From Polymyxa betae (taxonomy: Eukaryota; Endomyxa; Phytomyxea; Plasmodiophorida; Plasmodiophoridae), in NCBI GenBank assembly GCA_003693705.1, contig RBZT01000706.1:1-64000 (forward strand): a stretch of DNA of 64,000 nucleotides, given 5' to 3'. Of the stretch, positions 12,640 to 40,740 are shown in pieces (position 1 is the first letter of the stretch; each line of letters starts with the position of its first letter). The notes below the pieces were generated by a model, which saw only the letters and a program-made list of their open reading frames with translations, was not told where the DNA came from and ran no database searches. A program made the position numbers and the translations under genes.

Positions 12640-14804
12640 TTAGTGAGCTGGTAAGCATGGGCAAAGTCTGCTTGTCGACCAGTGGGTAGCTTCGCATGTC
12701 GGCCATTGCTCTGATGTCAAACAAAAACCCCAAACGTCAGGCTTCTGTCGATTCGAGACGAAATTTGGTACATCACTGCCAGTGACACCTCCTCGACAGC
12801 CCCGATCGCATGGGAAGTGCATTTGTAGCGAAGAGCAATGGTTGATGTACTGGAAATGATCTCGAGAGCAGCTCCATGTTCCATTACTTATCGACCAACA
12901 AGTATCCTTGCAGCTAGCTAAAGCGATGTTAAAATTTCGGAAACAAATTGTAAGTTGAAAAATTTAAAAAAACAACTACCCCCTTCTTTGCCTGCAGTTA
13001 CAACCAGTGAGGGATTCCTTGAAAAACGATGTTCTGGTGGACAAAAAGGGGATATTCGCTTATCGATCAAGAATAGAAAACGTTGGGGGCCTGTCTGCAG
13101 AACGGTGACGCCCTTATAATCCGTTCGTGGTGTAGGTAAAGTATTCAGCTCCGCGTGTATTTTGGATTCATAATCTTCCAGGAGATACAGATAGAGGTAG
13201 TATTCTGGCTCTGCAGAAGGATTTGACGTGATCAGCGTTGATAATATGCCTATAGCGGTTACCATAGTCAACTGGAAAGGACGGATATAAATGTCAACAG
13301 AAAGAGATTTGAAGCATAGAAAGCTAGAAAGAGAAATTGCAAATTCCTACCGCCGAAAACCTGCGCCTTCGAAATATACTCTTTCAAATGCTGGTCGTAA
13401 TTGTGTTGCAGTAGATAGCTCAAATCACCAAAATCTTCAACCGGGTCCTCGGCAAATTTGGCCAGCGCCAAATACTTGGAAAAGAATTCGCGGGATACTG
13501 TAGCACCAGTTGCACCGATATTCTGATTCCTGGATATCTACAGAATAATCAGTCGACCACTAGATTCAAGCTTCGAGAGTCTTAAACTTACCCTTGGTGC
13601 AATGCATGATCTTCCTTTGCTAACAGTGTCAAGCCTCATCCAATGGTCCCAGTGATCTAATGGGAACACTGGCCCAATCTCCATCCATAGGTTTCGCTTC
13701 ACCATCCAGCCCTTGACAAAACATTTACTGAACTGCGACAAATTTGTTGACGTAGTACCAGTCCGGGAAAGAAATCCGTTCTAAACAATGCTCGATTGTC
13801 TAAAGAGTAAGGAGCAAGGCCAAGATCGTTCCAGGACGATATACACCAGATACTCTGAGCAACAGTGTTAAAAACATGCTGATTCTTATTGCAGCGTTGG
13901 AAACAATATCAATAATAATACAATGCAGATTTACAGACCGGGTCTAGATCAAGGAGTGGAGCAGTCTGTTCGAATAGGATCAGAGCATCTTCCGACAGCA
14001 GAAGATCATCTTCTATCACAACAACATGTGAATGGTTACGCTGGAGAAACAGCTGGTCTAATGCCCAGCGGTAATGCTGAGCAAGATAGGCTGTAGCGTC
14101 CTAAAAACGAATATAAATATGCATCTCTCGAATTACGAAACATGCAAGCCTGCTGTGGATATAGAAGAGGCTCTCTCTTATGACGAATGTGAGTAACCCA
14201 ATCGGAATGCAATTCCAGCAGCGCTGCAATGTCAGAATTATCTTCATCTTGCGATGCGTAAATAGCAAATTTCGAGCGTCTCGGCAGCGATTTTAAACCT
14301 ATAACAAGACAGTCGTCATTTGTCATACACAGAATCTGTAGATTACTGAATTCAACATACGATCTAGAACTGCACTGAGATAATCAGGCCGGTTGTAGGT
14401 CAGAACAAGGATAGCTGGATTTCGTGTAATATCATCGAAGTATTTTTCCTCGCGAATGATTTTCCTATACAGGTCTTCAATGGAACTCTCCCTAACTGTC
14501 TTTATTGGCGAATCCGGCATCAAGGGATTGATAGACATGATATTCTAAAGCAGATAATTAACCAATAACGGAGGAAATGGAATTTGTATACCTGATCAAT
14601 GGCTGCGAACTGGAACGGCAACAACATCGTAGTCCCTAGAGCCAGAGACACCATCACGAGGAGAGCAACTCTAAAATTCCGTCGCCACATCGGCCATCGC
14701 CTCTCTGGCCGTGTCGCCATCGTCAATTCTCCTGCATCGGGTATCTGATGACGCCCTTCTATCTCAAATGAAAAGAAAACGGGTCCCGCCCCTGTAACAG
14801 GCAC
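12640..14804 (-). CDS. MGAT1: MGAT1-type GlcNAc-transferase I with an MGAT5-like Cys-rich tail
   Basis: GT13 enzyme that adds the first GlcNAc to the oligomannose core in the Golgi, opening hybrid and complex N-glycan synthesis. The N-terminus (ATG 14804, or 14720) has a type II helix (ALLVMVSLALGTTMLLPF). Then come AILVLTYNRPDYLSAVLDRM, FAIYASQDEDN, VVVIEDDLLLSEDALILFEQ (EDD metal site), SIWCISSWNDLG, FRTDFFPGLGW, DHWDHWMR and GRSCIAPRVS, all in the family order. About eight exons with short introns. After the usual C-terminal end (SLVVTAGKEG) a 64-nt intron joins an extra exon ending at 12640 that encodes ASCKDTCW, 12 cysteines in all, and finishes RLCPC. That pattern is the C-terminal Cys-rich module of MGAT5, not part of GT13. 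See finding. Confidence 0.85.
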
Positions 14805-39499: not shown

Positions 39500-40740
39500 T
39501 TATGGGAATAGGCCGAATGGAAGGAAAGGTGTTGACGGCCATGGATCGACGGGGAAGATACTCATTCCGGGCATTAAGGGGATAATTGGAGGAAATACTG
39601 GCGCTTTTGGAGGGGAGAATGGGATGCACAAAGGCGGCGCAAATCGACCCAGTTGGCCATATGGGAAGCCGCTGGTTGCAGATAAAGGAGAAAACCCAGC
39701 GCCTGCTGCTGGTGCGGCAGTTCCAGCGCCTTCTGTTGGTGCGGCAGTTCCAGCAACAGGAGCAGGACCCCCTGCACCACCAGCAGGTCCTGGTTCGGTT
39801 CCGCTCGCATTGGCTCCAGCAGCTCCAGCTGCTGGTTGTAGCAACGACGAAAGTTGAGATAATGGAATCAAGGTAATAGTTGGAGTTTGCTCTGCCCCAG
39901 CAGCTGCCGCTACAAAGCCTCTAGCCTGGTTACCAGGGTTCCTTTTAAATCCCACCGTACCTGTTTGACCACCAGCACCCCCAAAGCCGCCAGGGTATAA
40001 TGCTGCAAATAGATTCAATTATTCGACAATTATCTCTGTGCTCTTACCTGTATTCTGGAGAAGAGATAATTCGGGTGCGTATGAAGTGATTATGCCTGGC
40101 GAAGCGGATCCCCCTACACCTGGTGGTAAATACGTCGTTTCGAGCAACGAAGCTAATGGCGCGTATGAAGTAATCGTAACCGGTGCTCCTCCACCTCCAC
40201 CATAGCCGAGCGCTGCAGGTAGAGCAGGTGCGTCTAAAGCCCCAAAGCCACGTACGCCTCCTAACGAAGACGTTCCAGCGCCTATGAAAGCATTACTGAC
40301 GGAACCCATTGATGATCTATGAACCAACCTTGTAATCCTCCACCTCCAGCTCCTTGGCTTCCAGCACCTTCGGCCCCTTGAGCACCGGCACTAACCGGTA
40401 AAGTGACAACCGGGATTGATATCGGGGCTGTCGTTTGTGCACTGGTTTGCTCTGCCGCCAAGGCTGCACTTATCGGAGCTGGCGAAGCGGTTGCAATTGG
40501 TGCCTGTGTTGGAGGAAGTGTGAGTACTATTGGAGGCGGCTGTCCTGTAGGCAATGGTGGAATCGGGGTGCTGGTTGCTGGCGCCGGTGTGCCAATTATT
40601 GGTGGTAAAGTTGCTGGAGGTGGAGTTATTACAGGCTGGGAAGGGGGAATGCTTAACGGTGGCGCCGTTGGCGTACAACATGGTTGTCTGATCTGTGCTG
40701 TCGCGATTGCGACCAACGCAATCAACGTTGTTGAAAGCAT
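39500..40740 (-). CDS. Secreted low-complexity protein, family member A
   Basis: Three exons on the minus strand. The start (40740) is a signal peptide (MLSTTLIALVAIATAQ) then IRQPCCTPTAPP. A Pro/Thr/Ile-rich domain follows, then ISIPVVTLP and a Gly/Ala-rich run ending GGGLQG at the first intron. The second exon holds VTITSYAPLASLLETTYLPP and a second, shorter ITSYAPELSLLQNT. The third holds TITLIPLSQLSSLLQPAAGA and a Gly/Ala/Pro-rich tail ending LPFGLFP. No known domain. The same modules, in the same order and with the same splice position after G-G-x-Q-G, occur in the gene at 55236-56957. Secretion is inferred; a role in a wall, coat or adhesive is speculation. Confidence 0.75.

What the first reader, a model, noticed from the sequence alone, without database searches (positions are those of the whole stretch)
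12640..14804. MGAT1 enzyme fused to an MGAT5-type C-terminal Cys-rich module
The GT13 catalytic domain is followed, across a normal 64-nt intron in the right phase, by an exon with 12 cysteines. Its pattern (GASCKDTCW ... SCSRDHFQYIN ... FCLTSE ... CEATHW ... RLCPC) follows the C-terminal Cys-rich region of MGAT5 (GQSCKQVC ... C..SFFQHLN ... C ... SC..AH ... RVCPC). In animals the two occur in different enzymes acting at different steps. A fusion could anchor, oligomerise or re-target GnT-I, or mean that this module is an older, mobile Golgi-enzyme domain. I know of no described GT13 protein with it.
Basis: partly seen in the sequence, partly recalled or inferred. Interest (0 to 1): 0.75.

Follow-up and report, generated by a model that had tools for sequence, protein, structure and literature searches.

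The report
Sugar enzyme with borrowed cysteine tail
The gene encodes a Golgi-type sugar-adding enzyme that ends in the same cysteine-rich domain as the unrelated animal enzyme MGAT5; this build is shared by an old branch of the enzyme family in many single-celled eukaryotes and is missing from the land-plant and mammalian members compared here.

Summary

"MGAT1 with an odd fusion" is too narrow. The tail is present in 67 of 120 and 117 of 120 listed homologues of two searches, from many protist lines. On the catalytic domain alone, 41 tailed and 12 untailed rows split at 100/100 (human POMGnT1, whose place is unresolved, and the truncated models were left out). The untailed side holds rabbit GnT-I, land plants and another GT13 gene of this genome. 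So the window gene belongs to an old second GT13 subfamily. The module also sits beside other domains. My open-access literature searches found no description of it. What the tail does, and which acceptor these enzymes use, is unknown but testable.

The parts
14592..14720 (-). Exon 1 (residues 1-43): start codon, short cytoplasmic end, one hydrophobic stretch starting near residue 16-20, type II membrane anchor (inferred)
   Evidence: exon; best 19-residue hydropathy 2.18 at residue 18
14361..14544 (-). Exon 2: stem and start of the GT13 domain
   Evidence: (PF03071 from residue 86)
14150..14298 (-). Exon 3: GT13 domain (SQD motif, residue 120). Followed by a 49-nt intron that needs a GC donor to keep the frame
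13939..14100 (-). Exon 4: GT13 domain with QHYRW (162) and the metal/donor motif EDD (184)
13759..13854 (-). Exon 5: GT13 domain (SSWND 214, FFPGL)
13592..13711 (-). Exon 6: GT13 domain with HWDHW (260), which holds the candidate catalytic base
   Evidence: the first W and D of this motif invariant in 39 of 39 aligned tailed proteins
13351..13537 (-). Exon 7: end of the core GT13 domain. The following 140-nt intron could be two introns around a tiny exon of about 9 nt (both readings keep the frame)
   Evidence: (sequence)
12980..13210 (-). Exon 8: second GT13 subdomain (YKGVTV strand)
   Evidence: assignment by homology (in the relative P0010 the match to POMGnT1 5ggi spans residues 1-335)
12918..12979 (-). 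62-nt GT-AG intron, phase 1, between catalytic part and tail
12640..12917 (-). Exon 9: MGAT5-type C-terminal cysteine-rich module (residues 420-511, 10 Cys) and stop codon

Best explanation
The gene encodes a type II Golgi-lumen glycosyltransferase of family GT13, of an old subfamily distinct from canonical GnT-I, whose C-terminus is a disulfide-rich domain homologous to the C-terminal domain of MGAT5. Shown by sequence and models: the architecture, the homology and fold of the tail, the retained donor/metal and catalytic-base motifs, the separate clade, and, in a relative, both parts in one confidently predicted body. [quoted passage not shown] Also inferred: the tail is a lumenal docking module that holds the enzyme to a protein or glycan partner (another Golgi enzyme or the acceptor glycoprotein) rather than taking part in chemistry. 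I give about 0.95 to the architecture and subfamily, 0.7 to a GlcNAc-transferase activity, and 0.45 to the docking role.
Against: No activity, localisation or RNA data for this gene. Its own PF15024 match (19.4 bits) is below Pfam's cut-off of 28; the claim rests on the family profile and the fold. One of eight introns needs a GC donor. The catalytic part was modelled in a relative, not in the window protein. Counted as they stand, the labels tailed/untailed need 6 changes on the larger trees, because 7 and 6 untailed rows lie inside the tailed side; that these are truncated models is inference. Where POMGnT1 is added it moves about: on the canonical side at 87/90; among some tailed rows at 42/80, where the tailed rows form one side in only 47% of bootstrap trees. 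So the deep order within GT13 is unsure. Two tail searches of the own genome saw only C457 and C336; the tails of C351 and C504 were read by eye and from weak tblastn pieces. A single packed body (pTM 0.92) fits a structural cap as well as a docking module.
Confidence: 0.7

Rival explanations
1. The tail is only a structural cap: a disulfide-locked C-terminal domain needed for folding and stability of this GT13 subfamily, with no partner to bind.
For: High pTM of the two-part model of P0010 (0.92); the tail is present in 117 of 120 listed hits of one search; in MGAT5 the subdomains are described as tightly connected, not independent (PMC6107550 passages).
Against: Tandem second modules (19 of 76; not modelled here) and modules on proteins with other domains are not expected of a cap fitted to one enzyme.
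Confidence: 0.4
2. These enzymes are not GnT-I in function: the subfamily uses another acceptor (O-mannose, glycolipid, other mannosides), and the canonical copy (C163) does the GnT-I step.
For: Canonical-type and tailed genes coexist in this genome. Chlorella vulgaris, which has a tailed GT13 (P0155), makes mainly oligomannosidic N-glycans, with traces of Man5Gn seen in a commercial sample (PMC6344472 passages). A 2025 review states that the substrate specificity of microalgal GnT I has still to be investigated (PMC12507850 passages).
Against: The same papers take the trace Man5Gn as sign of GnT-I action, and the review cites GlcNAc-terminated glycans in Botryococcus and others. I could not test whether Chlorella also has a canonical copy. 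Donor and base motifs are kept.
Confidence: 0.3
3. A recent, lineage-specific fusion of an ordinary MGAT1 gene with an MGAT5 C-terminus.
For: Both parts do exist, and C135 holds a GT18-type catalytic stretch in this genome.
Against: Tailed relatives in many lineages; 100/100 split on the catalytic domain; holding the window gene with the genome's canonical-type GT13 is rejected, p-AU 0.0285, and all four own genes together, p-AU 0.0192 (moderate values, groups named after first trees were seen).
Confidence: 0.04
4. Artefact: two neighbouring genes or an assembly join read as one.
For: No transcript data for this species; one non-standard splice donor.
Against: The junction matches unbroken proteins from other sources; two paralogues on other contigs, C351 and C504, show the same order; no in-frame ATG ahead of the module.
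Confidence: 0.03
5. Convergent cysteine-rich domain, not related to MGAT5.
For: Cysteine-rich folds can resemble each other by chance; only 8 of the 10 cysteine columns of the profile meet an MGAT5 cysteine (alignment).
Against: Profile score of MGAT5 39.1 bits against at most 14.3 for 1000 cysteine-kept shuffles; MGAT5 is the only significant PDB match of the tail by sequence and by fold; in the relative P0010 the match extends over 91 residues at 1.8 Å.
Confidence: 0.02

Closest known systems
Canonical GnT-I / MGAT1 (GT13; rabbit 1fo8, 1foa)
   Different: No cysteine module in the canonical rows; the tailed proteins form a separate side of the tree, 100/100; HWDHW in the window protein where rabbit has FWDDW
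MGAT5 / GnT-V (GT18; 5zic, 6yjq)
   Different: MGAT5's catalytic part is a GT-B fold of another family (PMC6107550, passages). The aligned MGAT5 region lacks tail cysteines 4 and 6 and the full G-x-D-I/V-P-N motif that is common in the GT13 tails (it keeps D-I)
POMGnT1 (GT13; 5ggf, 5ggi)
   Different: Its solved chain was not matched by the tail profile at E up to 10; its place in the tree is unresolved

Membership tests
GT13 (PF03071, GNT-I family) | Profile match over the curated cut-off | tested here: met
   221.9 bits, cut-off 25.4, residues 86-339
GT13 (PF03071, GNT-I family) | Donor/metal motif EDD and catalytic Asp in the W-D motif | tested here: met
   EDD at 184, HWDHW at 260; W and D invariant in 39 of 39 aligned tailed proteins. 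That EDD binds metal/donor and that this Asp is the base is recalled, not from a call
GT13 (PF03071, GNT-I family) | GT-A fold | tested here: inconclusive
GT13 (PF03071, GNT-I family) | UDP-GlcNAc beta-1,2-transferase activity | not testable with these tools
   needs enzyme assay
Canonical GnT-I (MGAT1) orthologue | Groups with rabbit and plant GnT-I in a tree of the catalytic domain | tested here: not met
   On the other side of a 100/100 branch (53 rows, POMGnT1 left out)
Canonical GnT-I (MGAT1) orthologue | Ends with the second GT13 subdomain, no further module | tested here: not met
   93-residue cysteine module follows
Canonical GnT-I (MGAT1) orthologue | Acts on Man5GlcNAc2 | not testable with these tools
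   needs assay or complementation
MGAT5 C-terminal domain (module, as distinct from the enzyme) | Sequence profile match | tested here: met
   MGAT5 E 2.8e-7; 31 of 31 tails match PF15024 at E up to 1
MGAT5 C-terminal domain (module, as distinct from the enzyme) | Pfam PF15024 gathering score | tested here: not met
   Window protein 19.4 bits, cut-off 28; relative P0014 (31.0) and the C336 frame (30.6) pass, P0023 (24.1) and P0126 (20.6) do not. The model covers the whole GT18 enzyme, so a lone tail scores low
MGAT5 C-terminal domain (module, as distinct from the enzyme) | Fold | tested here: met
MGAT5 C-terminal domain (module, as distinct from the enzyme) | Five disulfides | tested here: inconclusive
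   10 cysteines, 8 profile columns aligned with MGAT5 cysteines; pairing was not read from the model
MGAT5 / GT18 enzyme | GT-B catalytic domain of GT18 | tested here: not met
   PF15024 match covers only profile positions 445-557 of 557; the catalytic part matches GT13

The most novel reading that the evidence does not exclude
The common ancestor of living eukaryotes already had two GT13 enzymes. One, with this C-terminal module, was kept in many protist lines and lost in animals and land plants. The module is an old lumenal adaptor that was later captured by GT18 to make MGAT5, and the tailed enzymes are not GnT-I in acceptor use, so many protist genes now labelled MGAT1 are misnamed.
Probability: 0.3. 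Interest if true: 0.78.

Novelty: new variant of a known kind. Interest (0 to 1): 0.6.

Why it matters
GnT-I is the gate to complex N-glycans, and protist pathways are often inferred from the presence of a GT13 gene. If a second, tailed subfamily makes up much of what is annotated as MGAT1 in protists, those inferences need testing. It would also give the MGAT5 C-terminal domain, for which the passages that I saw state no role of its own, a much wider set of relatives in which its function can be tested. A tail-less mutant, or a rescue of GnT-I-deficient cells, would answer this directly.

Tried and rejected
Rejected: separate gene for the tail (no in-frame ATG; paralogues with the same order); recent fusion (tree and AU tests); chance cysteine pattern (shuffles).

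Led nowhere: viral contigs, 10 pattern matches and no relative by tblastn. Prokaryote genomes, 27 pattern matches and 2 relatives: L018 is an untailed GT13 filed under a Hyphomicrobiales MAG; L019, filed under a Verrucomicrobiaceae MAG, is a tailed GT13 split over several frames beside a carboxypeptidase-like gene (name recalled from the sequence), which I read as eukaryotic contamination. PF05060, PF04666 and PF10218 gave no match in the own genome, but nothing rang in the controls either, so this shows no absence. The organism could not be named. The gene next door had no Pfam match at E 0.1 and no PDB match at E 10. Whether any one species besides this one has both subfamilies was not settled: Tetraselmis rows of both kinds exist (P0110 untailed; P0062 weakly tailed, 15.3 bits, genus read from its source id by recall), from different records.

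Rows dropped: 13 hits with under 190 aligned positions of the core (12 of them tailed) and 33 of 37 land-plant-like rows were left out (85 kept), 14 rows were left out and POMGnT1 added (72); searches used 54 and 53 rows chosen by hand. Seven untailed rows inside the tailed side (P0043, P0045, P0063, P0068, P0077, P0087, P0102) end early or in apparent read-through; six of them were and none. Reading them as truncated models is inference. The own genes C351 and C504 were labelled tailed by hand. The cysteine counts use 62 of 166 tail alignments, those that cover the whole profile.

Full report
What is there. On the minus strand between 14720 and 12640 lies a gene that I model with nine exons. 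It encodes 511 residues: a short N-terminus with one hydrophobic stretch, a GT13 catalytic domain (PF03071, E 1.7e-65, residues 86-339) and a 93-residue C-terminal module with 10 cysteines. The eight introns are 47, 62, 49, 84, 47, 54, 140 and 62 nt. Seven are GT-AG. Intron 3 keeps the frame only with a GC donor; the paralogues C351 and C504 also break at about that place. The 140-nt intron 7 could be two introns around a tiny exon of about 9 nt. The tail intron is 12979-12918, phase 1.

Who else has it. A search with the window protein gave 134 hits, of which 120 are listed. By a tail profile 67 of these 120 are tailed. A search with residues 80-514 of the tailed relative P0023 gave 435 hits, 120 listed; 117 are tailed and the three others stop or go astray at or near the start of the module. 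Names given by the sources of tailed rows include Bodo saltans, Paratrimastix, Balamuthia mandrillaris, Baffinella, Prymnesium parvum, Chrysochromulina, Chlorella vulgaris, Auxenochlorella, Trebouxia, Parachlorella and Symbiodinium; ids that I read from memory as Rhynchopus, Andalucia, Rhodelphis and Cyanophora are also tailed. Which lineages these genera belong to is general knowledge. Several tailed rows carry transcript ids, so the joined message exists in those species.

Subfamily. In a tree of the catalytic domain (85 rows) 14 untailed rows lie on one side of a starred branch: rabbit GnT-I, four land plants, Blastocystis, Tetraselmis chui, six unnamed rows and the own gene C163. The other 71 rows are 64 tailed and 7 untailed that look truncated; counted as they stand, the labels need 6 changes. 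With human POMGnT1 added (72 rows) the split is 87/90 with POMGnT1 on the canonical side. With another choice of 54 rows, POMGnT1, on a long branch, falls among some tailed rows at 42/80, and the tailed rows form one side in 47% of bootstrap trees. Without it, 41 tailed and 12 untailed rows split at 100/100, in 100% of 200 bootstrap trees (no truncated rows in this set). Forcing the window gene beside C163 is rejected at p-AU 0.0285; forcing all four own genes together at 0.0192. These are moderate values, and the groups were named after the first trees had been seen.

In its own genome. PF03071 finds 11 stretches on four contigs, which I read as four GT13 genes: the window gene, C351, C504 and C163. 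C351 and C504 have the module, split by further introns; C163 shows none before the next open frame. The tails of C351 and C504 were read by eye and from weak tblastn pieces; two searches of the genome with single tails saw only C457 and C336. C135 has a GT18-type catalytic stretch (PF15024 positions 170-463) in an open frame that shows no tail. C336 has the module (30.6 bits) in one 259-aa open frame with a weak SPRING1 match (PF10218, E 0.011, under its cut-off). GH38 pieces, as in alpha-mannosidases, lie on C244 and C415.

Mobility of the module. Besides GT13 and MGAT5 it occurs in P0127, an Exo_endo_phos protein, where two copies can be read by eye. P0128, another protein of the same length and domain, is tailed too. 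Two or more copies occur in 19 of 76 tailed proteins, some of them partial. That argues for a module with a binding role, but it is inference.

How it most likely works. Shown: a GT13 with a hydrophobic N-terminal stretch, with donor/metal motif (EDD), SQD and the W-D of the base motif kept, and an MGAT5-type domain at the end. Inferred: Golgi location, transfer of GlcNAc to a mannose, and a docking role of the tail. The strongest rival for the tail is a plain structural cap. The strongest rival for the activity is another acceptor. Chlorella vulgaris has a tailed GT13 (P0155) but mainly methylated oligomannosidic N-glycans, with traces of Man5Gn in a commercial sample that its authors link to a GnT-I (PMC6344472, passages). 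I could not test whether it also has a canonical copy; the putative C. sorokiniana GnT-I named in PMC6344472 and PMC7383745 (passages) was not examined.

What is known. A domain-based survey of plants, animals and fungi treats GnT-I as PF03071, found by it in animals and plants only, and GnT-V as a PF15024 enzyme; the passages that I saw mention no joint protein (PMC5225481). A GT54 study says in the passage seen that GT54 resembles GT18 and GT17 in distribution (PMC12616123). A review of microalgal N-glycosylation calls for tests of GnT I specificity (PMC12507850, passages). My searches for a GT13 with an MGAT5-type tail found no description (open-licence PMC papers only). The joint Pfam labels do sit in the database rows themselves, so the architecture is visible to anyone who looks. 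I therefore call it a new variant of a known kind, not a new kind.

Verdict. Observation confirmed with small corrections. Interpretation partly supported: right about the module, too narrow about the fusion.

Noticed in passing
L013:5027-5806 (G000 contig C336, about 39526-40305): The MGAT5-type module (PF15024, 30.6 bits) in the same open frame as a weak match to SPRING1 (PF10218, E 0.011, below cut-off): possibly a SPRING-like Golgi protein with the same tail. Gene model not made.
   Followed up: partly
P0127 and P0128 (database proteins): Endonuclease/exonuclease/phosphatase-family proteins that carry the module; in P0127 two copies can be read by eye, one with a long insert.
   Followed up: partly
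P0002, P0006, P0008, P0009, P0122-P0125 and others: GT13 proteins with two tandem modules: 19 of 76 tailed proteins, some second copies partial, including Bodo saltans and a diplonemid (lineage recalled from the id).
   Followed up: partly
G000 contig C135, 92566-93360 (-): A GT18-type catalytic stretch in an open frame of 611 aa without a visible cysteine module; an intron-split tail cannot be excluded.
   Followed up: partly
window 12457-11537 (-): Directly downstream on the same strand, a second gene with a hydrophobic N-terminal stretch and a transferase-like EDD motif, without Pfam or PDB match. The neighbour of the GT13 in L018 (3088-3870) looks similar by eye (P-T-x-x-R start, EDD).
   Followed up: partly
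L019 (genome contigs, filed as a Verrucomicrobiaceae MAG): A tailed GT13 spread over several frames beside a carboxypeptidase-like gene: probably eukaryotic DNA binned into a bacterial MAG.
   Followed up: partly
L018:1980-3065 (filed as a Hyphomicrobiales MAG): An untailed GT13 in one open frame next to bacterial-looking genes.
   Followed up: no
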